Below are positions 10,101-20,070 of a stretch of 64,000 nt of DNA, piece by piece (positions within the stretch are counted from its first letter, which is position 1; the number at the start of each line of letters is the position of its first letter). A program made the translations under genes and the position numbers. Location of the stretch: the NCBI RefSeq assembly GCF_040409815.1, contig NZ_CP099959.1:682001-746000 (forward strand). The letters are read 5' to 3'. The notes under the pieces are model-generated. The model saw only the letters and a list, made by a program, of their open reading frames with translations, made no database searches and was not told where the DNA came from. Origin of the DNA: Polynucleobacter sp. UK-FUSCHL-C3 (lineage in GTDB: Bacteria > Pseudomonadota > Gammaproteobacteria > Burkholderiales > Burkholderiaceae).

Positions 10101-10550
10101 ATGGCAAAGTTGACCATCAATGGAAAAGTACGAACTGTAGATGTAGATCCAAATACCCCCTTACTTTGGGCGATTCGTGAGCAAGTTGGCTTAACAGGTA
10201 CTAAATACGGTTGCGGTATTGCGCAATGTGGCTCCTGCACAGTATTGCTCGATGGAGCAGCAATTCGTTCATGTGCTTTGCCAGTCAGCGCAGCTGAGGG
10301 TAAGAAAATTGAAACCGTTGAGAGCCTCTCCGTTGGTGGCAAATTAAATAAATTACAGCAAGCATGGGTTGATAAACAGGCACCGCAATGCGGCTACTGC
10401 CAAACCGGCATGATTATGGCTGCTACTGCCTTGCTCAGAAAAAATCCCAAGCCCAGCGATGCCGATATTGATGCTGCCGTGACCAATATCTGCCGTTGTG
10501 GAACCTTCCAAGAAGTGCGTGCCGCAATCCATGCAGCAGCGAAGGCATAA
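10101..10550 (+). CDS. iorA: (2Fe-2S) small subunit of an isoquinoline 1-oxidoreductase-type Mo hydroxylase
   Basis: The 149-residue subunit carries two 2Fe-2S clusters, as in the xanthine oxidase family. The plant-type ferredoxin domain has CGIAQCGSCTVLLDG and a fourth Cys in RSCALP. The helical domain has CGYCQTGMIM and ICRCGTFQEVRAAI. GAGGAG precedes ATG 10101. It passes electrons from the Mo centre of the large subunit, whose gene starts ten bases after this one stops. It is the first gene of a tight six-gene run ending with the SoxA-like gene. The substrate of the complex is unknown; IorAB is the nearest named family, but aldehydes or N-heterocycles are both possible. Confidence 0.88.
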   Translation: MAKLTINGKVRTVDVDPNTPLLWAIREQVGLTGTKYGCGIAQCGSCTVLLDGAAIRSCALPVSAAEGKKIETVESLSVGGKLNKLQQAWVDKQAPQCGYCQTGMIMAATALLRKNPKPSDADIDAAVTNICRCGTFQEVRAAIHAAAKA

Positions 10551-10560
10551 GGAGAAAATC

Positions 10561-12771
10561 ATGAATGCACGCGTACCTAATTTATCCCGTCGCCAATTTA
10601 TTGTTGGCACATCTGCAATTACAACGGGCTTAGCCATTGGTCTAGAGTTTCCCGGCGTCATTGGAACTGCTCATGCACAAGCTGCTGATAAAGCCAGCGC
10701 CCCTGAGATTGGTGTTTGGGTTGTAATTCAGCCAAACGACACCGTTGTGATTCGGGTTGTTCGCTCCGAGATGGGCCAGGGCACTATTACTGGCTTAGCC
10801 CAATTGGTTGCTGAAGAGCTAGAGTGTGATTGGAAAAAAATTACCATCGATTACCCAACACCAGGTGAGAGCCTAAAACGCAAGGGTGTTTGGGGATCAT
10901 TCTCCACCGGCGGTAGCCGCGGTATTCGTACCTCAGAAGACTATGTGCGCAAGGGCGGTGCGGCTGCCCGTATCATGTTGGTTCAGGCTGCTGCTAATCA
11001 GTGGGGTGTTCCTGCAGTCGAATGCTTGGCAGTCAATAGCATCATTACACATCAGGCTAGTGGTCGCTCCGTTAGCTTTGGCAAGGTTGCAGCCGCAGCT
11101 GCTAAGTTACCCGTACCCGATGCAAAGGGTATTGAACTAAAAGATCCGAAGCGTTGGAAGGTGATCGGTAAGCCGATGGATCGCTTGGATAGTTTGGCTG
11201 ATAAGGTCACCGGTAAGCAGGTCTATGCGATCGACCTCAAGATGCCCGGCATGCTGAACGCAACCATTAAGGACAGCCCCGTATTTGGTGGCAAGCTCAA
11301 AAGCTTTGATGCTAGCAAAGTAGCTGGCATGAAGGGTGTCAAAAAGGTTGTGCAGGTTGGTGATTCAGCGGTTGCCGTGATTGCTGACACATTTTGGCAA
11401 GCAAAAACAGCGATGGATCGTTTGCCAATCGTATGGGATGAAGGTCCTAATGCAAATGTGCAACAAGCCGATATTCTGAAGCGTTTAGAAGAAGGCTTAA
11501 AAGCAGAGCAAACCTTTGTAGGTAATGCGAACGGTGATTACAAGAAGGTCGCTGCAGACTCTTCTAAAACGATTGAAGCGCAGTTCTTCTATCCGTTCTT
11601 AAACCATGCACCAATGGAGCCAATGAACGCAACAGCGGTATGGACCCCAGACAGTTGCCGTGCTTGGGTACCAACTCAAGACGGTGAAGCCTCTTTGGCC
11701 GCGGTGATTGCTGCCTCGGGCTTAACCGCTGATAAGTGTGATGTCATTAAGGTAAATCTAGGCGGTGGCTTTGGTCGTCGCGGTGCTTTCCAGGACTACA
11801 CCACCCAGGTGGTCAATATCGCCAAGCAAATGCCAGGCACACCGATCAAGTTGATTTGGACTCGTGAAGAAGATATGACCCAAGGTCGCTATCATCCCAT
11901 CATGATGTGCAAAATGAGCGCTAGCTTTGATAGCAAGAAAAACCTGACGGGTGTTCATATGCGTTTATCGGGTCAATCGATCTTGACCTCCGTGCGCCCT
12001 GCAGTGGTTGCGCAAAACAAGGGTATGGACCCATTGGTATTCCAAGGCGTTGCGAAGGGCGGCGAGCATGGTATTAGCTATGACTTCCCGAACCTGATGA
12101 TCGATCACGCGATGCGCAATACGCACGTACCTCCAGGATTTTGGCGGGGCGTGAACATTAACCAAAATGCGGTGTTCATGGAATGCTTTATGGATGAGTT
12201 GGCAGAATACGCTGGAGTCGATCCAGTCGAGTTCCGTCGCAAGTACTCTGCGAACTATCCACGTAATCTAGCGGTGCTTAATGCAGTAGCCGATCGGATT
12301 GGTTGGACCAAGCCAGCACCCGCCGGGGTATTCCGTGGGATTGCACAGCAAAAATCCTTTGGTAGTTTCGTAGCTGCTGCCTGTGAGCTATCGGTCACCG
12401 ATGGCAACAAGGTCAAGATTCATCGCATCGTTGCAGCAACCGATCCTGGATACGCAGTTAATCCTGCCCAAATTGAGCGTCAAGTCTCCGGCTCGTTTGT
12501 ATATGGCTTATCTGCCTTATTCGAGGAAGAGTGCACGGTCAAGAATGGTCGGATTGAGCAGACCAACTTCGATACCTTTGGATCGATTCGCTTAAAACAG
12601 ATGCCTAAAGTAGAGACCATCATTATTCAGGGTGGTGGCAAGGAGTGGGGCGGTATTGGTGAACCTACTATTTCAGTAGCGGCACCTGCCGTTTTAAACG
12701 CCTTTTACCGAGCAACGGGTAAGCGGATCCGCACAGTACCTCTAAAGAACAGCGGTATTACGCTCGTCTAA
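10561..12771 (+). CDS. iorB: Molybdopterin-binding large subunit, isoquinoline 1-oxidoreductase-type hydroxylase
   Basis: The 736-residue catalytic subunit begins with a Tat signal (LSRRQFIVGTSA), so the folded, cofactor-loaded complex is probably exported. This is consistent with cytochrome partners encoded next door. MCD-binding landmarks include EMGQGTITGLAQLVAEEL, GSFSTGGSRGIR, NHAPMEPMNATA, GGGFGRRG, and the C-terminal GGIGEPTISVAAPAVLNA, whose Glu is the catalytic base of the xanthine oxidase family. I chose ATG 10561 because AAGGAG lies seven bases before it and the Tat motif follows. The frame is open further upstream to 10498, but that part overlaps iorA. The periplasmic site and the following sox-like genes suggest electrons leave through cytochrome c. 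Confidence 0.88.
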   Translation: MNARVPNLSRRQFIVGTSAITTGLAIGLEFPGVIGTAHAQAADKASAPEIGVWVVIQPNDTVVIRVVRSEMGQGTITGLAQLVAEELECDWKKITIDYPTPGESLKRKGVWGSFSTGGSRGIRTSEDYVRKGGAAARIMLVQAAANQWGVPAVECLAVNSIITHQASGRSVSFGKVAAAAAKLPVPDAKGIELKDPKRWKVIGKPMDRLDSLADKVTGKQVYAIDLKMPGMLNATIKDSPVFGGKLKSFDASKVAGMKGVKKVVQVGDSAVAVIADTFWQAKTAMDRLPIVWDEGPNANVQQADILKRLEEGLKAEQTFVGNANGDYKKVAADSSKTIEAQFFYPFLNHAPMEPMNATAVWTPDSCRAWVPTQDGEASLAAVIAASGLTADKCDVIKVNLGGGFGRRGAFQDYTTQVVNIAKQMPGTPIKLIWTREEDMTQGRYHPIMMCKMSASFDSKKNLTGVHMRLSGQSILTSVRPAVVAQNKGMDPLVFQGVAKGGEHGISYDFPNLMIDHAMRNTHVPPGFWRGVNINQNAVFMECFMDELAEYAGVDPVEFRRKYSANYPRNLAVLNAVADRIGWTKPAPAGVFRGIAQQKSFGSFVAAACELSVTDGNKVKIHRIVAATDPGYAVNPAQIERQVSGSFVYGLSALFEEECTVKNGRIEQTNFDTFGSIRLKQMPKVETIIIQGGGKEWGGIGEPTISVAAPAVLNAFYRATGKRIRTVPLKNSGITLV

Positions 12772-12774
12772 GGT

Positions 12775-13212
12775 ATGCGGTTTGGGATTGCGCTAGCGAT
12801 TAGTGCGCTGCTAGCGCTTCCCACAAGCTCTCAGGCGCAAATCATTTGGGATGGCGATGCCATCCCAAATTCATTAAGCGGTAAACCTGGAGACCCCATC
12901 AAGGGCCGCACACTTGTGACCAGTCGGCAGACCGGCTTATGCATCTTGTGCCATGCCGGCCCGTTTCCAGAAGAACGTTTTCAAGGTAACTTAGCCCCAG
13001 AGTTAAAACTCAGCGTTGCTAATCTATCGGCCGCACAACTGCGCGCTCGCTTAGTAGACCCTTCTAAAACCAGTGCCAACACGATCATGCCTTCCTACTT
13101 TAGAATCGATCATCTCCAGCGCGTTGCCCCTCAATTTGCTGGTAAGACCGTATTGAGTGCCCAAGAAATTGAAGATGTCATTGCCTATTTGTTAACCATC
13201 AAAACACCATGA
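12775..13212 (+). CDS. soxX: SoxX-like monoheme cytochrome c
   Basis: The 145-residue protein has a signal peptide cleaved near SQAQ (about residue 21) and one heme c site, CILCH (Cys56, Cys59, His60). A likely axial Met lies in TIMPSYFRID, typical of SoxX, as is GLCILCHAGPFPE. SoxX pairs with SoxA to form the SoxAX enzyme that attaches thiosulfate sulfur to the SoxY arm. It starts three bases after the iorB stop and overlaps the soxY-like gene by four bases. The placement suggests that it may accept electrons from the hydroxylase or from a sulfur intermediate instead of serving a full Sox pathway; soxB, soxC and soxD are absent here. Confidence 0.82.
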   Translation: MRFGIALAISALLALPTSSQAQIIWDGDAIPNSLSGKPGDPIKGRTLVTSRQTGLCILCHAGPFPEERFQGNLAPELKLSVANLSAAQLRARLVDPSKTSANTIMPSYFRIDHLQRVAPQFAGKTVLSAQEIEDVIAYLLTIKTP

Positions 13213-13652
13213 ACCAGCGTCGTGTATTTATTACCTCATTGACTGCGCTTACATTAAGCCCATGGCAGAGCGCTAGCGCGACCCCAAGCGATGCAATGCA
13301 AGCGATGAAAGCGATTGTCGGCAATCGTCCTGTAAACACGGGGCGTATCTATTTTGAGTTACCGCCCCTTGTCGAGAACGGTAATTTAGTGGCGATTAAG
13401 TTTTCTGTACAAAGCCCAATGACGCAAAACGATTACGTAAAAGCCATACACATCATCGCCGAGGCTAATCCATTACCAAACGTGGTGAGTTGTTATTTCA
13501 CACCCCTATCGGGTAAGGCGGAAGCAAGCACGCGGATTCGTTTGGCTGACTCCCAAAAGGTATGGGCTTTGGCACAAATGAGCGATGGCTCATTTTGGCG
13601 CACCAGCGTTGATACGGTGGTAACTCTCTCTGCCTGTACGGAGATGATATGA
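13209..13652 (+). CDS. SoxY-like carrier protein with altered C-terminal arm
   Basis: A 147-residue protein with an N-terminal twin-arginine-like start (MNQRRVFITSLTAL) and a signal peptide ending near SASA. The body resembles SoxY (IYFELPPLVENGNLVAIKFSVQSPM, IHIIAEANPLPNVVSCYFTP, TRIRLADSQKVWALAQMSDGSFW). Canonical SoxY ends in the swinging arm GGCGG. Here the end is VVTLSACTEMI, with Cys143 four residues from the C terminus and no flanking glycines. I recall a named SoxY-paralogue group with an AACIE-type arm, and this protein fits it better than true SoxY. It probably carries a covalently bound sulfur or other group on Cys143. Confidence 0.78.
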   Translation: MNQRRVFITSLTALTLSPWQSASATPSDAMQAMKAIVGNRPVNTGRIYFELPPLVENGNLVAIKFSVQSPMTQNDYVKAIHIIAEANPLPNVVSCYFTPLSGKAEASTRIRLADSQKVWALAQMSDGSFWRTSVDTVVTLSACTEMI

Positions 13653-13978
13653 GTCGTTCCTCTCGAGCAGTCGTTACGCTTCCCAAAACAGCAAAACGGG
13701 GTGAGGTATTTTCAATCCGCGCCATTGTGCAGCATGAGATGGAGTCGGGCTTTCGGCATACCGAGCAGGGTGTTCGCGTGCCCCGCGACATTATTCGGGA
13801 GTTTGTTTGTACCTATAACGGCAAAGAAGTATTTAAGGCTGACCTTCATCCGGGCGTCGGTTCGAACCCACTCTTTATTTTCTATGCCAAAGCAGACCAA
13901 TCCGGAACTCTCGAGTTTAAGTGGACGGGCGATAGCGATTACCTCACGATCGTAAAACAGGCCATTACTGTTTTATGA
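13649..13978 (+). CDS. soxZ: SoxZ-like partner of the SoxY-like carrier
   Basis: The 109-residue product has no signal peptide, as is normal for SoxZ, which is exported in complex with SoxY through Tat. Family features are AKRGEVFSIRAIVQHEMESGFR, the VPRDIIREFVCTYNGKEVF segment, and the immunoglobulin-like tail ending in DYLTIVKQAITV. It overlaps the soxY-like gene by four bases and the soxA-like gene by four bases, so translational coupling is likely. It should form the scaffold half of a YZ-type heterodimer. Confidence 0.85.
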   Translation: MSRSSRAVVTLPKTAKRGEVFSIRAIVQHEMESGFRHTEQGVRVPRDIIREFVCTYNGKEVFKADLHPGVGSNPLFIFYAKADQSGTLEFKWTGDSDYLTIVKQAITVL

Positions 13979-14736
13979 GATTGCTAGGGCAATGTGCCTT
14001 ATTGGGTTTATTGCTGACAAGCACACCTTTCTTACAGGCTGATTCTAGGGTATCAGCTTATGCATTGATGTCGCCCACTAATCAGGCGATGCAAAATGAT
14101 ATGAGCTTAAATCCAGCCATGTTTTGGATCATGGACGGCGAGGCTCTTTGGATCGATCGTAATAATCCCAGTAGTAAAGCCTGCGGTGATTGTCATAGTG
14201 ATGTGAAGCAATCCATGAAAGGTATCTCTGCCACCTTTCCAAAACGGGTTCAAGGTAAATTACTCAATCTGGAAGGGCAAATTAATCAATGCCGTACCAC
14301 TCGCCAACAATCACCCACTTTTGCGTATGAGTCTAAGCCATTACTAGCGCTAAGCACTCTAATTGCCTATCAATCCAGAGGCTTGCGTATTGCTGCTTCG
14401 AAAGATTCTGCAATAGATGCTGATTTTCAAAAAGGTAAAACTCTTTATTTTCAGAGAATGGGGCAGCTAAATCTATCGTGTGCGCAGTGCCACGATGACA
14501 GAGCAGGCTTAAAGCTGGCGGGTAGCGTTATTCCCCAGGCGCATCCTACTGGGTATCCGATCTATCGTTTGGAGTGGCAGAACGTCGGCTCCTTACAGCG
14601 TAGGTTACGTAATTGTATGTCGGGAGTGCGGGCAGAACAATATCCTTATGGTTCTGTGGAGCTTGCCCAAATCGAGCTTTATCTAATGCGTCGTGCAAAT
14701 GGTATGCGGATTGAAAGCCCAGCAATCAGACCTTAG
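13975..14736 (+). CDS. soxA: SoxA-like diheme cytochrome c
   Basis: The 253-residue protein has a signal peptide (to about LQA, residue 22) and two heme c motifs: CGDCH (Cys70, Cys73, His74) and CAQCH (Cys169, Cys172, His173). The RLRNCMSGVRAE segment holds Cys214, the position that in SoxA becomes a persulfide ligand of the active heme. So the key catalytic parts of a diheme SoxA are all present. It ends the operon and its stop overlaps the convergent xdhC-like gene by four bases. Together with the SoxX-like protein it should form an AX complex acting on the altered SoxY arm. Confidence 0.85.
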   Translation: MRLLGQCALLGLLLTSTPFLQADSRVSAYALMSPTNQAMQNDMSLNPAMFWIMDGEALWIDRNNPSSKACGDCHSDVKQSMKGISATFPKRVQGKLLNLEGQINQCRTTRQQSPTFAYESKPLLALSTLIAYQSRGLRIAASKDSAIDADFQKGKTLYFQRMGQLNLSCAQCHDDRAGLKLAGSVIPQAHPTGYPIYRLEWQNVGSLQRRLRNCMSGVRAEQYPYGSVELAQIELYLMRRANGMRIESPAIRP

Positions 14737-15680
14737 GTTTGCTTGCCGTACTTGACTGCAATCACTTCGGCCATTACCGAGACCGCAATCTCTGGAGGCG
14801 TTAGGGCGCCAATGGATAAACCCACAGGCCCATGCAAACGATCGAGTTGCTCGGTCGATAAATTGAACTCCCGCAGACGCTCTTTACGCTTGACGGTGTT
14901 GGTGTAACTGCCTAGCGCTCCAATATAGAAGGCTTTTGATTGCAGGGCGTCGATCAGGGCAAGATCATCAATCTTGGGGTCGTGCGTGAGAGCCACAATC
15001 GCAGTGTGGGAGTCAATCCCTAATTCTTGCATCACATCATCGGGCATGCCTTTGATGAACTGGATACCTTCTTGGCTAAGACCCTCGGTGTATTCCTCAC
15101 GGGGGTCAATGACCACTACATCAAAGTCTGCCGCTAGAGCAAAATTAGCAACATATAAAGAGAGTTGTCCTGCGCCAATCACGAACATACGCCAACGGGG
15201 TCCGTAGGAGGTTTGCATCTCAGACTCGCTTAGCGAGAAACCATCTTCTCTGGTTCCCAGGTGAAGGGTGGATTTACCTGAACCAAGATTAACCCGTCGT
15301 AATATGATCTGATGGCTTTCAATCTTCTCGAGAATGCTGTCTAAAATACCTTGCTCTGGTCTGGGCTCAACCAATAAGCGTATTGTGCCACCACAGGGCA
15401 AACCAAAGCGAGCCGCTTCCTCTTTGCTAACGCCATACACCACGAGTTCAGGGGTATTGCGCGTCAAGATCTCAGTCTGTACCCGCCGGATTAAATCATC
15501 CTCCACGCATCCACCAGATACCGAGCCAACCACTTGTCCATCCTCCCGAATCGCAAGCCATGAACCAACAGGCCGCGGGGAGGAGCCCCAGGTTTGGACC
15601 ACCGTCGCGATGGCCATGCGCTTGCCTTCGTGTAACCACGCTAGGGCAGTTTTGAGGACGATGTAATCTGTACTATTCAT
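14733..15680 (-). CDS. xdhC: XdhC/CoxI-family molybdenum hydroxylase maturation factor
   Basis: This 315-residue protein (start ATG 15680) has the XdhC layout. The N-terminal domain has IATVVQTWGSSPRPVGSWLAI and GSVSGGCVEDDL. The Rossmann C-terminal domain has MFVIGAGQLSLYVANFALAADFDVVVIDPRE, then ALTHDPKIDDLAL and IGALGS. XdhC proteins hold and sulfurate the Mo cofactor before inserting it into xanthine-dehydrogenase-type enzymes. The reading frame stays open to 15902, but the upstream part overlaps the divergent mocA-like gene and has no family match, so the shorter start is preferred. Its position facing the iorAB-sox operon points to that hydroxylase as its client. Confidence 0.85.
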   Translation of the reverse strand: MNSTDYIVLKTALAWLHEGKRMAIATVVQTWGSSPRPVGSWLAIREDGQVVGSVSGGCVEDDLIRRVQTEILTRNTPELVVYGVSKEEAARFGLPCGGTIRLLVEPRPEQGILDSILEKIESHQIILRRVNLGSGKSTLHLGTREDGFSLSESEMQTSYGPRWRMFVIGAGQLSLYVANFALAADFDVVVIDPREEYTEGLSQEGIQFIKGMPDDVMQELGIDSHTAIVALTHDPKIDDLALIDALQSKAFYIGALGSYTNTVKRKERLREFNLSTEQLDRLHGPVGLSIGALTPPEIAVSVMAEVIAVKYGKQT

Positions 15681-15753: not shown

Positions 15754-16359
15754 ATGAACGCAAAGCAAACAAAACTCGCAATACTTCTTCTGGCGGCTGG
15801 GCAAGGCAGTCGCTTGGGAAACATTGCGAAGGCGCTCCTAAAAAAAGATGGCATACCCTTGATCCAGCGCTTTTGGCAAGAGGCATCCTCATTAAATGCC
15901 ATCGAATCGATCAGCGTCTTGGGGTTTTATGCAGATGGGATTGAGCCACTAGCAAAACAATATTCACGGGTAGTAATCAATCAGCAAGCAGAAGAGGGAC
16001 ATGGATCGTCAGTACGGTTAGGACTGGAGTCTCTCGATACCCATTTTGATCTTCTACTGATTGCTTTAGTCGATCAACCCAGCATTACTCAAACATCACT
16101 AGAGTTATTACTCAATACTTTTGAGACGCAAGGGGACGAAATAGATGCACTAGTGCCATGCTATCAAGGACAGCGTGGTAATCCAATTGTGATGCGCCGT
16201 AGAGCAGTGCTTGAGATCTTAGATACGCCTACACAAGTGTGTCGCGAATGGCTAGATCTGCATCCTAGCCGAGTTCATTTTCTGGAAACTAATCGAGCTG
16301 AATTCATTGCAGATGTCGATACTCTAGAGGATCTTCAGAGAGAGCATCTAGAGTATTAA
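15754..16359 (+). CDS. mocA: MocA-like molybdenum cofactor cytidylyltransferase
   Basis: The 201-residue nucleotidyltransferase begins LAILLLAAGQGSRLGNIAKALL, a MobA/MocA nucleotide-binding loop. It continues with LLIALVDQPSITQTSLELLL (a Mg-binding DQP motif) and ALVPCYQGQRGNPIVMRR (the GxRGNP motif). MocA makes the cytosine dinucleotide form of Moco, which xanthine-oxidase-type enzymes need, so the gene fits the hydroxylase next door. I start at ATG 15754, which leaves a 73-base divergent spacer from xdhC. An ATG at 15679 would overlap xdhC and adds residues that match nothing. Confidence 0.85.
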   Translation: MNAKQTKLAILLLAAGQGSRLGNIAKALLKKDGIPLIQRFWQEASSLNAIESISVLGFYADGIEPLAKQYSRVVINQQAEEGHGSSVRLGLESLDTHFDLLLIALVDQPSITQTSLELLLNTFETQGDEIDALVPCYQGQRGNPIVMRRRAVLEILDTPTQVCREWLDLHPSRVHFLETNRAEFIADVDTLEDLQREHLEY

Positions 16360-17734: not shown

Positions 17735-19435
17735 ATGAATACGTCTTCACCCAATTTGGAGTTTGATACCGTTATTGTCGGGGCTGGAAGCGCAGGCTGC
17801 CTTTTGGCAAATCGTCTATCCGCTAATCCAAACCACCGCGTTCTATTACTCGAGGCAGGCGGTGAGGACGATTGGTTTTGGATAAAAGTCCCCGTGGGAT
17901 ATTTATTCACGATTGCCAATCCCAGAACCGATTGGTGTTTTAAGACCGAAGCAGATCCGGGACTCAATCAACGATCGATTCATTACGCCAGAGGCAGGGT
18001 CATTGGTGGCTCATCCTCTATTAATGCCATGATCTATATGCGGGGGCAGGCCAGTGATTATGAGCGTTGGGCAGAACTGACTGGTGATCCCATATGGCAG
18101 TGGAGCACCACCCTAGAGACCTATAAATCACTAGAGAGCTATTACGCAGGCTCTAACGCTTGGCATGGCGATGCGGGCGAGATGCGGGTAGAGCGCCCGC
18201 GTGTGCAGTGGGATATTTTGGATGCATGGCGTGAGGCAGCGCACGAGCAAGGCATACCAAAGATTGAGGAGTTTAATCGTGGCAATAATGAAGGCTGCGC
18301 ATACTTTCAGATGACCCAACAGCGCGGTGTGCGTTGGTCAATGGCAGATGCTTATCTACACCCTATCCGCCATCGGCATAACCTTACTGTGCTTACTCGA
18401 GCACAGGTCTTAAAACTTAATCTCAGCACAATTGCCCCAGAGACATTGAACCAAGCTTGCTATACCCAAAGTGCCTGGCGCGGTGCGCACAGTGAAGTTC
18501 GGGGCTTGGAACTTTTGCATCAAGGAGTTCGTAAAACGATTATCGCCAAGGATCAGGTGATTCTGTCGGCTGGGTCGATTGGCTCACCACATCTTTTGCA
18601 AGTTTCTGGAATTGGACCGCGAGGCCATTTAGATAGTATCGGCGTTAAAACGCAGGTCGATTTACCCGGAGTCGGAGAGAACCTCCAAGACCACTTACAA
18701 ATCCGTACCGTTTATCAGGTGGAGAACTGCAAAACGGTGAACACACTGTATAAAAACTGGTTCACACGGATTGGGATGGGGCTCGAGTATCTACTAAAGC
18801 GTACGGGCCCACTAACGATGCCGCCATCGACCTTGGGTGCATTTACGAAGAGCGATCCCAATCAAGTCAGCGCTAATATCGAATGGCATGTTCAACCTCT
18901 CTCGCTGCCGAAGTTTGGGGAGCCCCTCCATCCGTTTAATGCGATTACCCCAAGCGTTTGCAATCTCAGGCCAAGTAGTCGAGGTTGGATTCGGGGGACA
19001 ACACCCAATGTCTTAGACGACCCTAAGATTCAGTGTAATTATTTATCGACTCCTGACGATCTCTCTGTCGCTGTTAATAGTCTTAAAATCACCCGACAGA
19101 TTATGGCAAGCTCAGCACTAGAGTCTTATAGACCAAAGGAAGTATTACCAGGCCCAAGTATTCAAAGTGATCACGATCTAGAACAAGCAGCCAGAGACTT
19201 GGGAACCACCATCTTTCATCCGGTGGGTACTTGCGTGATGGGTAAGGTGGATCAATCCGGTAGAGTAGAAAATCCCAACACCGTTTTGGATTCTGAATGT
19301 CGGGTCAGAGGGGTAGCTCGCCTACGCGTGATTGATGCCTCTGCTATGCCGTGTATAACCTCGGGCAACACCAATGCCCCGGTCATGCTAATCGCAGAAA
19401 CCGTCGCCAGAAAGATTGTGGCGCAGAGAGCTTAG
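17735..19435 (+). CDS. GMC-family FAD oxidoreductase (choline dehydrogenase-like)
   Basis: The 566-residue flavoprotein begins with an FAD-binding Rossmann motif, VIVGAGSAGCLLANRLSA followed by LLLEAGG. The GMC signature 1 region is YARGRVIGGSSSINAMIYMRG and signature 2 includes GSIGSPHLLQVSGIGP. The C-terminal catalytic pair is the His in FHPVGTCVMG and the Asn in SGNTNAP. Such enzymes oxidise primary alcohols to aldehydes and give electrons to quinones or oxygen. Choline dehydrogenase and alcohol dehydrogenase AlkJ are the nearest well-known members. No betaine genes are nearby, so choline is not implied. Confidence 0.88.
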   Translation: MNTSSPNLEFDTVIVGAGSAGCLLANRLSANPNHRVLLLEAGGEDDWFWIKVPVGYLFTIANPRTDWCFKTEADPGLNQRSIHYARGRVIGGSSSINAMIYMRGQASDYERWAELTGDPIWQWSTTLETYKSLESYYAGSNAWHGDAGEMRVERPRVQWDILDAWREAAHEQGIPKIEEFNRGNNEGCAYFQMTQQRGVRWSMADAYLHPIRHRHNLTVLTRAQVLKLNLSTIAPETLNQACYTQSAWRGAHSEVRGLELLHQGVRKTIIAKDQVILSAGSIGSPHLLQVSGIGPRGHLDSIGVKTQVDLPGVGENLQDHLQIRTVYQVENCKTVNTLYKNWFTRIGMGLEYLLKRTGPLTMPPSTLGAFTKSDPNQVSANIEWHVQPLSLPKFGEPLHPFNAITPSVCNLRPSSRGWIRGTTPNVLDDPKIQCNYLSTPDDLSVAVNSLKITRQIMASSALESYRPKEVLPGPSIQSDHDLEQAARDLGTTIFHPVGTCVMGKVDQSGRVENPNTVLDSECRVRGVARLRVIDASAMPCITSGNTNAPVMLIAETVARKIVAQRA

Positions 19436-19794: not shown

Positions 19795-20070
19795 ATGAGA
19801 ACAGTTTCTTTGTTAATCGGTCTAGGGCTACTGGGGGCTCAGTCTTCCTTTGCCCAAGACCCAAGCCAGTGTGGGTTTATCTCTGAAAGTAATTACCGAT
19901 CGCTCTGCCGAGCCTTGGCTGAAAAAAACTCTAGCCAATGCGGATTTATTTCTGAGAGCAATCTGCGCTCGATGTGTCGAGCAATTGTGGAGAAGGATTC
20001 AAGTCAGTGCGGCTTCATTAACAATAATGATCAACGATCCATGTGCCGCGCATTAACCGTCAGTCGATAG
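19795..20070 (+). CDS. Small secreted protein with three Cys-containing repeats
   Basis: The 91-residue product has a signal peptide (SSFAQ, cleavage near residue 20). The rest consists of three tandem 23-residue repeats with the pattern SQCGFISESNxRSxCRAxxEK. Cys pairs are at 26/38, 49/61 and 72/84, always 12 residues apart. The third copy has diverged to INNNDQ. The strict spacing suggests one disulfide per repeat in a helical-hairpin solenoid. No function or family is recognised. A signal peptide and codon-level conservation of the repeats argue that it is a real gene. It is followed 16 bases later by an SDR gene. Confidence 0.7.
   Translation: MRTVSLLIGLGLLGAQSSFAQDPSQCGFISESNYRSLCRALAEKNSSQCGFISESNLRSMCRAIVEKDSSQCGFINNNDQRSMCRALTVSR
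19864..20067 (+). repeat. Three in-frame 69-base tandem repeats
   Basis: These bases encode the three 23-residue units of the secreted repeat protein. Copies 1 and 2 are most alike (AGCCA-TG-GG-TTTAT-TCTGA). Copy 3 has diverged most in its central third. Differences between copies are largely at third codon positions, which points to selection on the protein. Confidence 0.7.

What the first reader, a model, noticed from the sequence alone, without database searches (positions are those of the whole stretch)
10101..14736. Exported molybdenum hydroxylase fused operonically to a SoxXYZA-like module
Two hydroxylase genes and soxX-, soxY-, soxZ- and soxA-like genes run in one direction with gaps of 10, 3, -4, -4 and -4 bases. 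The large hydroxylase subunit has a Tat signal, so all products should meet in the periplasm. True thiosulfate oxidation also needs SoxB and usually SoxCD, and none is here. A reasonable idea is that the Sox-like proteins carry a substrate or a sulfur group on the SoxY arm for oxidation by the Mo enzyme, or that SoxXA takes electrons from it. As a joint system this looks undescribed.
Basis: partly seen in the sequence, partly recalled or inferred. Interest (0 to 1): 0.75.

Follow-up and report, generated by a model that had tools for sequence, protein, structure and literature searches.

The report
Molybdenum enzyme operon with repurposed SoxYZ
A six-gene operon, found again in many proteobacteria, pairs an exported molybdenum enzyme with an altered set of sulfur-carrier proteins and no thiosulfate-oxidising partners, suggesting that a known sulfur carrier was repurposed to serve another enzyme on a substrate still unknown.

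Summary
Six genes at 10101-14736 run as iorA-iorB-soxX-soxY-soxZ-soxA (gaps 10, 3, -4, -4, -4). SoxY fails the thiosulfate-carrier model and passes TIGR04487, 'SoxY-related AACIE arm protein'. The genome has a separate soxCDYZAXB with a GGCGG-arm SoxY.

The unit is conserved. In a 399-genome sample of its order, 67 of 75 strong SoxY-paralog hits lie within 6 kb of an IorB homolog; of the 64 genomes with that linkage, 17 have no SoxB over cut-off. Bradyrhizobium-type genomes carry the same genes plus a flavocytochrome c sulfide dehydrogenase (FCSD). Of 102 IorAB-SoxXYZA loci none has GGCGG and 100 have C-x-[DE]; all 12 SoxB-linked loci have GGCGG. The linked SoxYs form one group (99/96).

Best reading: SoxXA loads a sulfur-containing, probably organic, cargo on SoxY Cys143, and IorAB oxidises it there; FCSD drains released sulfur. 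Linkage is shown; the chemistry is inferred. I found no paper describing the unit; its SoxY family is named in NCBIfam.

The parts
10101..10550 (+). iorA-like small subunit, two [2Fe-2S] clusters predicted (8 Cys: 38, 43, 46, 58, 97, 100, 131, 133)
   Evidence: best solved match 8gy3_B, 157 bits
10561..12771 (+). iorB-like large Mo subunit, 736 aa, RRQF twin-arginine motif at residue 10, loop EWGGIGEP with Glu701
   Evidence: only MoCoBD_2 gene found in the genome; model closest to 8gy3_C
12661..12663 (+). codon of IorB Glu701 in the GEP motif (catalytic base of the xanthine oxidase family, role recalled)
   Evidence: alignment to 8gy3_C and position
12775..13212 (+). soxX-like cytochrome, one CxxCH
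   Evidence: TIGR04485 above cut-off; CxxCH at residue 56
13209..13652 (+). soxY paralog, C-terminal arm ...VVTLSACTEMI, TIGR04487
13635..13637 (+). codon of SoxY Cys143, arm cysteine
   Evidence: invariant in the 12-sequence alignment A1; aligns with the arm Cys of solved SoxY 2ox5/2oxg
13649..13978 (+). soxZ-like carrier subunit
   Evidence: PF08770 and TIGR04490 above cut-off
13975..14736 (+). soxA-like dihaem cytochrome, CGDCH and CAQCH, predicted haem-ligand Cys214
   Evidence: TIGR04484 above cut-off; aligns with 1h31_A and 2c1d_A over the ligand Cys
14614..14616 (+). codon of SoxA Cys214 (predicted substrate-side haem ligand)
14733..15680 (-). xdhC-like Mo-enzyme maturation factor, convergent with soxA; start at 15680 chosen from relatives (open frame reaches 15902)
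   Evidence: homolog near the block in 6 of 116 loci, all close relatives
15754..16359 (+). mocA-like molybdenum cofactor cytidylyltransferase relative (TIGR03310 106.5 of 186 bits, below cut-off), divergent from xdhC

Best explanation
A periplasmic Mo-hydroxylase / SoxYZ-carrier system, separate from thiosulfate oxidation. SoxXA, which keeps its cysteine haem ligand, oxidatively couples a sulfur-containing cargo (most likely an organic thiol or thione) to Cys143 on the altered SoxY arm. The arm presents the adduct to IorAB, which hydroxylates the carbon next to the sulfur with water. This yields a carbonyl product and leaves sulfane sulfur on SoxY or releases sulfide. Flavocytochrome c sulfide dehydrogenase, linked in some loci, oxidises that sulfur, and electrons go to cytochrome c. 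Shown here: conserved linkage, altered arm, absence of SoxB from the module, catalytic motifs of IorAB and SoxXA, recurrent FCSD. Inferred: cargo, tethered oxidation, C-S cleavage, electron route.
For: Linkage: IorB near para-SoxY in 77 of 80 named loci and for 67 of 75 order-sample hits of 113 bits or more; 101 of 102 IorAB-SoxXYZA loci have IorB upstream on the same strand. Some loci keep IorAB with SoxYZ alone, making carrier plus Mo enzyme the core. SoxA is still found in 65 of 67 genomes, among them the five SoxB-less genomes whose four-gene locus I fetched. Arm: GGCGG in 0 of 102 linked against 12 of 12 SoxB-linked; acid at C+2 in 100 of 102. SoxA has two CxxCH and C....R in 100 of 102, the other two masked or cut. 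FCSD in 21 of 102 linked loci; the window's genome has one FCSD elsewhere, at 1.35 Mb. In B. diazoefficiens soxY1, not soxY2, is essential for thiosulfate oxidation (PMC5748708); that soxY2 is this paralog is my inference.
Against: No cargo, adduct or activity is known. The nearest solved relative is an aldehyde dehydrogenase (8gy3), which has no such carrier. Neighbouring catabolic genes differ between lineages (GMC oxidoreductase, GSDH-type dehydrogenase, hydantoinase A/B) and name no organosulfur substrate. No linked FCSD in 81 of 102 linked loci, the window included. Nine fetched IorBs of the linked clade sit away from any para-SoxY, in genomes chosen because they carry the paralog. 47 of 64 linked genomes have SoxB (one as a fragment), so cross-talk with canonical Sox is possible. 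L178 and L179 lack the acidic arm residue.
Confidence: 0.38

Rival explanations
1. SoxYZ is a periplasmic sulfur donor or protector for the exported Mo enzyme: a persulfide on Cys143, charged by SoxXA or FCSD, restores the terminal sulfido ligand of molybdenum, which XdhC can supply only in the cytoplasm (XdhC role recalled).
For: Explains why the unit sits beside unrelated catabolic genes, lacks SoxB and SoxCD, can shrink to IorAB-SoxYZ, can have a second IorAB in tandem (L055, L058, L063, L077, L082, L112) and was joined by an IorB of another clade in L122. Maturation, redox control or protection has been proposed for SoxYZ-like carriers of PQQ alcohol dehydrogenases (PMC12997753 section 15).
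Against: The 12 fetched outgroup IorB loci, four of them with an XdhC homolog near, have no SoxYZ. No precedent for periplasmic resulfuration is known to me.
Confidence: 0.2
2. An ordinary exported aldehyde dehydrogenase: SoxXA is its cytochrome partner and SoxYZ rides along or scavenges reactive sulfur or aldehydes that would poison the enzyme.
For: Both subunits are closest to Gluconobacter aldehyde dehydrogenase 8gy3, whose third subunit is a cytochrome c (recalled). A GMC oxidoreductase lies near in 6 of 116 loci and a GSDH-type dehydrogenase with a cytochrome directly upstream in L071.
Against: Four-gene loci keep SoxYZ, not SoxXA, next to IorAB; fetched unlinked IorABs have no credible adjacent cytochrome; SoxA keeps its catalytic Cys ligand, not needed for simple electron transfer; the arm change tracks the partner.
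Confidence: 0.2
3. A side branch of inorganic sulfur oxidation: IorAB replaces SoxCD as the Mo enzyme that oxidises sulfane sulfur on SoxY.
For: SoxXA, SoxYZ and FCSD are sulfur-oxidation proteins; SoxC is also a Mo enzyme. A SAR324 paper suggests a novel sulfur-oxidising mechanism for FCSD flanked by SoxYZ alone (PMC4782131).
Against: Without SoxB no sulfate is released (recalled role); IorB belongs to the xanthine oxidase, not the sulfite oxidase, family; the arm differs from all 12 SoxB-linked SoxYs examined; B. diazoefficiens soxY2 is not essential for thiosulfate oxidation (PMC5748708), if it is this paralog.
Confidence: 0.1
4. Cys143 forms a thiohemiacetal with an aldehyde made by a neighbouring alcohol dehydrogenase and hands it to IorAB for oxidation.
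For: Parallels the SoxYZ-like carriers beside PQQ alcohol dehydrogenases (PMC12997753, PMC11237559); GMC or GSDH genes in some loci.
Against: Does not need SoxXA or FCSD, both retained; only 8 of 116 loci show the GMC or GSDH genes searched for.
Confidence: 0.1

Closest known systems
Canonical Sox system (SoxXYZA, SoxB, SoxCD), here soxCDYZAXB of the same genome
   Same: SoxX, SoxZ and SoxA pass the same NCBIfam models; SoxYZ carrier with one arm cysteine; SoxA cysteine ligand
   Different: No SoxB or SoxCD in the block; arm SACTE instead of GGCGG; its own SoxY group; operon with a Mo hydroxylase
NCBIfam TIGR04487, SoxY-related AACIE arm protein
   Same: The window SoxY is a member (180.5 bits, cut-off 172)
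   Different: I could see only the family name, not its notes; they may mention neighbours. This work adds the IorAB partner, the FCSD, the SoxB-less genomes and the tree
Quinoprotein-dehydrogenase-associated SoxYZ-like carrier (TIGR04557) with SoxH-like hydrolase (PMC12997753, PMC11237559)
   Same: A SoxYZ-type carrier genetically tied to a periplasmic dehydrogenase rather than thiosulfate oxidation
   Different: Partner is a PQQ enzyme; Y and Z fused; SoxH-like hydrolase and rhodanese present; no SoxXA mentioned in the passages read. Window SoxY scores 54 of the needed 140 bits
FCSD flanked by SoxY and SoxZ in SAR324 bins (PMC4782131, passages)
   Same: Incomplete sox set with FCSD; the same genomes encode isoquinoline 1-oxidoreductase
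   Different: The passages do not say that the oxidoreductase is linked to soxYZ; no SoxA or SoxX recovered; arm type not given; I did not compare sequences
Membrane-bound aldehyde dehydrogenase of Gluconobacter oxydans (PDB 8gy3)
   Same: Best solved match for both IorA (157 bits) and IorB (249 bits; next best 82)
   Different: 26% identity over the fold match; cytochrome subunit absent here; Trp696 before the GEP loop falls on a gap beside Pro in 8gy3
Flavocytochrome c sulfide dehydrogenase (FccAB, SoxEF)
   Same: Linked flavoprotein has FCSD_central and FCSD-flav_bind domains; small cytochrome c detected in 8 of the 21
   Different: Linked in 21 of 102 loci, not in the window

Membership tests
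Thiosulfate-oxidising Sox system | SoxB in the locus | tested here: not met
   None in the block; SoxB homolog in 0 of 116 fetched para-SoxY stretches, SoxC homolog in 2 (L139, L140, neither with IorAB); the genome's SoxB lies in the other cluster
Thiosulfate-oxidising Sox system | SoxY arm GGCGG and SoxY_true model | tested here: not met
   SACTE; 90.7 of 125 bits; GGCGG in 0 of 102 linked loci
Thiosulfate-oxidising Sox system | SoxXA with cysteine-ligated active haem | tested here: met
   TIGR04484 and TIGR04485 above cut-off; Cys aligned with 1h31_A and 2c1d_A; motif in 100 of 102. Sequence only; ligation itself not testable here
TIGR04487 SoxY-related AACIE arm protein | score above curated cut-off | tested here: met
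   180.5 against 172 bits
Xanthine oxidase family Mo hydroxylase (IorAB / AldFGH type) | Mo-pterin domains, GEP glutamate, eight FeS cysteines | tested here: met
   IorB GxGEP in 99 of 102 loci
Xanthine oxidase family Mo hydroxylase (IorAB / AldFGH type) | cytochrome c subunit beside the enzyme (AldFGH, recalled), other than SoxXA | tested here: not met
   No such gene in the block; 8 of 9 unlinked clade members have no same-strand CxxCH frame within 5 kb and 1 a 73-aa frame; of 12 outgroup loci 10 have no CxxCH frame and 2 a doubtful one
Xanthine oxidase family Mo hydroxylase (IorAB / AldFGH type) | hydroxylation of an aldehyde or N-heterocycle | not testable with these tools
   needs enzyme assay
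Quinoprotein-associated SoxYZ-like carrier (TIGR04557) | fused SoxYZ above cut-off | tested here: not met
   54.0 (SoxY) and 33.2 (SoxZ) of 140 bits; separate genes
Quinoprotein-associated SoxYZ-like carrier (TIGR04557) | PQQ dehydrogenase and SoxH-like gene adjacent | tested here: not met
   None among the neighbours scanned between 6950 and 20070; not every small ORF there was scanned

The most novel reading that the evidence does not exclude
The first Mo hydroxylase that works on a substrate covalently tethered to a protein swinging arm: SoxXA attaches an organosulfur compound to SoxY, and IorAB oxidises the tethered compound and breaks its C-S bond. It would be a carrier-based periplasmic route for organic sulfur, spread through many proteobacteria.
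Probability: 0.3. Interest if true: 0.87.

Novelty: new variant of a known kind. Interest (0 to 1): 0.68.

Why it matters
SoxYZ is taught as the thiosulfate carrier. Here a whole group of SoxYs with an altered arm is tied to a different oxidative enzyme, keeps SoxXA and also occurs in genomes in which no SoxB was found. Counting soxY, soxZ, soxA or soxX in metagenomes as evidence of thiosulfate oxidation would therefore mislead for these lineages, which include Polynucleobacter and Bradyrhizobium-type bacteria. It also gives a concrete, testable second case (beside PQQ alcohol dehydrogenases) of Sox carriers serving another oxidising enzyme. A published SoxY survey deleted sequences without a GGC motif (PMC11237559, passage), so this group would have been left out of it.

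Tried and rejected
Rejected: (1) paralog that serves the genome's own SoxB/SoxCD: these have their own SoxYZ in their operon and the paralog falls in another part of the tree. (2) Chance neighbours: order conserved while flanks differ (LrgAB- and PurU-like in most Polynucleobacter, photolyase-like and XdhC here, others elsewhere; names of the first two by eye). (3) SoxXA filling a vacant cytochrome slot: no support. (4) One shared catabolic neighbour that would name the substrate: hydantoinase A in 9 of 116 loci, GMC in 6, FAH family in 6, GSDH-type in 2; none general. Hydantoinase A and B homologs also lie just upstream in L178, but were not found in its relative L179.

Led nowhere: literature searches for the joint system and for the 8gy3 paper. 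I looked at passages of the three papers listed: one is the SAR324 paper named above; in the other two the terms occur apart, unrelated to such a unit. The papers listed were otherwise not opened, except PMC12997753. The AlphaFold model of IorB (mean pLDDT 73, residues 108-122, 401-409 and 520-531 below 50) is too weak around the active site to judge a binding funnel; I used it only for the fold match.

Caveats on counts: the 143 loci are the named loci, the window, the genome's own sox cluster, and stretches I picked for variety or to follow exceptions, so 102, 12, 11, 15 and 3 are not random proportions; 77 of 80 and 67 of 75 are the less selected figures. Of the 102, L125 holds only a 33-residue piece of IorB and six loci (L038, L044, L051, L066, L084, L125) show no IorA, most being cut by the contig end. 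The 75 hits are those at 113 bits or more; weaker TIGR04487 hits (other SoxY types) were dropped. The listing was itself cut, and I entered 88 of its rows, so linkage can only be undercounted. Of the 17 linked genomes without SoxB over cut-off, 12 are at least 90% complete; two of these, G039 and G016, have matches of 80-91 bits (cut-off 550) that I counted as no SoxB, and G393, with a 331-bit fragment, I counted as having SoxB. The SoxY tree used 90 of 143 rows; the IorB tree 82 rows with the quick method and SH-aLRT only; both roots are midpoints. In the IorB tree the label 'second' for L117 and L174-L179 only reflects FCSD lying between IorB and SoxY.

Full report
WHAT IS THERE. Six open frames on the + strand at 10101-14736 encode, in order, a [2Fe-2S] small subunit, a molybdopterin large subunit, and SoxX-, SoxY-, SoxZ- and SoxA-like proteins, with gaps of 10, 3, -4, -4 and -4 bases. 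NCBIfam supports all four Sox names and Pfam three of them. The large subunit starts with a twin-arginine motif and SoxY has an RR-containing leader. Downstream, an xdhC-like gene (14733-15680, - strand) overlaps the end of soxA by four bases, and a mocA-like gene (from 15754, + strand) diverges from it: both look like maturation factors of the Mo enzyme. That enzyme is the only one with a MoCoBD_2 match in this 1.90 Mb single-contig genome.

NOT THE THIOSULFATE SYSTEM. The same genome has a soxC-D-Y-Z-A-X-B cluster about 164 kb away, with a SoxY ending in GGCGG. The window SoxY ends SACTEMI, misses the SoxY_true cut-off and passes TIGR04487, 'SoxY-related AACIE arm protein'.

CONSERVATION. 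A scan of the named genome collection with a 12-sequence SoxY profile found 370 relatives, of which the best 80 were fetched. IorB lies beside SoxY in 77 of these 80; in L056 and L085 the contig starts too close, and in L099 (a Polynucleobacter) IorAB is missing from its place. In a sample of 399 genomes of the same order, 75 hits in 67 genomes score 113 bits or more; 67 of the 75, in 64 genomes, have an IorB homolog within 6 kb. The block keeps its order although flanks differ between genera. A sample of 398 genomes of the phylum gave the highest scores in genomes of 6-9 Mb; SoxYs at 96-97% identity to that of one such locus (L175) are named Bradyrhizobium. The four loci fetched from that family (L174-L177) have IorA-IorB-FCSD-SoxX-SoxY-SoxZ-SoxA, with a small cytochrome c detected before FCSD in three. 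Two loci of another, unnamed family (L178, L179) have the same order, and L180 has it without FCSD.

SHOULD SoxB BE THERE? Of the 64 genomes with linkage, 17 have no SoxB above cut-off, 12 of them at least 90% complete. In seven of the 17 (G005, G012, G060, G100, G140, G181, G272) the only SoxA match is the module's own. SoxC above cut-off occurs in 2 of the 18 SoxB-less genomes searched (G140, G368). So, as far as these assemblies go, the module occurs without the genes for SoxB-dependent thiosulfate oxidation. The other 47 linked genomes have SoxB, one only as a fragment.

CORE AND VARIANTS. Among 143 classified loci, 102 have IorAB with SoxXYZA, 11 IorAB with SoxYZ and no SoxA nearby (one, L055, cut by its contig), 12 are SoxB-linked, 15 have SoxXYZA without IorAB or SoxB, and 3 only SoxYZ. 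Of the 102, 101 have IorB upstream of SoxX on the same strand; L132 has IorAB divergent. FCSD is linked in 21 of the 102: after SoxA in 14 (contigs labelled Alcaligenaceae, Comamonadaceae and others) and between IorB and SoxX in 7 (L117, L174-L179). The window's genome has one FCSD, far away at 1.35 Mb. In the five SoxB-less genomes whose four-gene locus I fetched (G016, G039, G065, G075, G148) the only full-length SoxA lies elsewhere, beside another SoxYZ pair. SoxA is present in 65 of 67 genomes; the two misses are an 84% complete genome and one where SoxY lies near a contig end.

THE ARM FOLLOWS THE PARTNER. GGCGG: 0 of 102 IorAB-SoxXYZA loci, 12 of 12 SoxB-linked loci. An acidic residue two places after the cysteine: 100 of 102 and 0 of 12; exceptions L178 and L179. 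In 8 of the 11 four-gene loci the arm is of a third kind (for example TACGG, SSCG, AGCGL).

TREES. In a 90-row SoxY tree, all IorAB-linked rows (52 six-gene, 10 four-gene) plus five SoxXYZA rows without IorAB form one group with support 99/96; its neighbour L131 has a GGCGG arm and no IorAB; the SoxB-linked rows lie outside. Within the group, labels change several times: SoxXA or IorAB has been lost or gained locally. In an 82-row IorB tree, 69 rows, including all linked ones except L122, are separated with support 100 from the 12 distant unlinked IorBs plus L122; nine unlinked IorBs nest among the linked. L122 thus pairs para-SoxYZ with an IorB of the distant group, apparently an independent joining. 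Sequences of the linked-type clade have Trp696 just before the GxGEP loop in 99% of 122, where 12 of 12 outgroup sequences have Pro; further clade-specific residues are Arg120, Gly121, Trp199 and Glu376.

CATALYTIC PARTS. Both Mo-enzyme subunits match Gluconobacter aldehyde dehydrogenase best among solved structures, the large one also by fold (from a moderate model). SoxA aligns with Rhodovulum and Paracoccus SoxA (organisms recalled) through both haem motifs and the ligand cysteine. In the Sox pathway SoxXA forms a disulfide between thiosulfate and the SoxY cysteine (PMC4423706, passages).

HOW IT PROBABLY WORKS. Retention of SoxXA with its ligand cysteine, absence of SoxB, a changed arm and a dedicated Mo hydroxylase fit a carrier whose cargo is made by SoxXA and processed by IorAB instead of SoxB. 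Linked FCSD fits released sulfide or sulfane sulfur. I therefore favour oxidation of an arm-bound organosulfur compound, at 0.38. The repair rival (SoxYZ persulfide restoring Mo=S) explains the variable catabolic surroundings at least as well, and is 0.2. No tool here can tell them apart.

LITERATURE. PMC12997753 (section 15 read, other passages) and PMC11237559 (passages) describe SoxYZ-like carriers beside PQQ alcohol or methanol dehydrogenases, a conceptual precedent. PMC5748708 (passages) reports that only soxY1 of two soxY homologs in B. diazoefficiens is essential for thiosulfate oxidation. PMC4782131 (passages) reports in SAR324 bins an FCSD flanked by SoxY and SoxZ with no other sox genes recovered, and, separately, isoquinoline 1-oxidoreductase; it may hold a relative of this unit, which I did not test. 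PMC11582611 (passages): no aldehyde or xanthine enzyme named. Ten searches found no description of the joint unit.

Noticed in passing
L003:8280-10610 (G000:C1:858.3-860.6 kb): Directly upstream of the canonical soxCDYZAXB lie an ABC transporter ATPase and permease that look like molybdate ModC/ModB (by eye; ABC domain of the ATPase) and an ArsR-like regulator (by eye).
   Followed up: partly
G000:C1:1351840-1352037: The window's genome has a single FCSD flavin-binding match (448-aa frame), not linked to either sox block.
   Followed up: no
L122:6504-9435: A para-SoxYZ pair sits with an IorB of the distant (about 38% identical) clade: apparently an independent joining of Mo hydroxylase and SoxYZ.
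   Followed up: partly
L138-L141, L099: SoxXYZA of the paralog type without IorAB; L138-L140 are from one genus, with TctC-type receptor homologs and SoxCD-like genes around it in L139 and L140; L099 is a Polynucleobacter with IorAB missing from its usual place.
   Followed up: partly
L158, L160, L162, L165: SoxB-less SoxYZ-A (or SoxA-only) clusters next to a BepA-like M48 protease gene and, in three, moaC (names by eye); in L160 SoxY and SoxZ appear to be read as one frame.
   Followed up: no
L178, L179: The unit is followed by an XdhC homolog and what look like molybdenum cofactor biosynthesis genes (by eye), in L179 with a LysR/ModE-like regulator first (HTH_1): a Mo-enzyme island.
   Followed up: no
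L044, L050, L057, L059, L063, L066, L082, L098: A MarR regulator, a dihydroorotate-dehydrogenase-like protein and hydantoinase/oxoprolinase genes follow the unit, in some with a DctP-type receptor (by eye): possible catabolic operon hinting at an N-heterocyclic substrate.
   Followed up: partly
window 19795-20070 (+): 91-aa secreted Cys-containing protein made of three similar units of about 23 residues (SQCGFI...RSMCRA); no convincing Pfam match.
   Followed up: no
window 17735-19435 (+): GMC oxidoreductase whose relatives also lie near the unit in L037, L129, L130, L166 and L167.
   Followed up: partly
L057, L066: Contigs titled Bordetella parapertussis carry the unit with neighbours like those of Zwartia and other Alcaligenaceae loci; the titles look like misassigned metagenome bins.
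   Followed up: no
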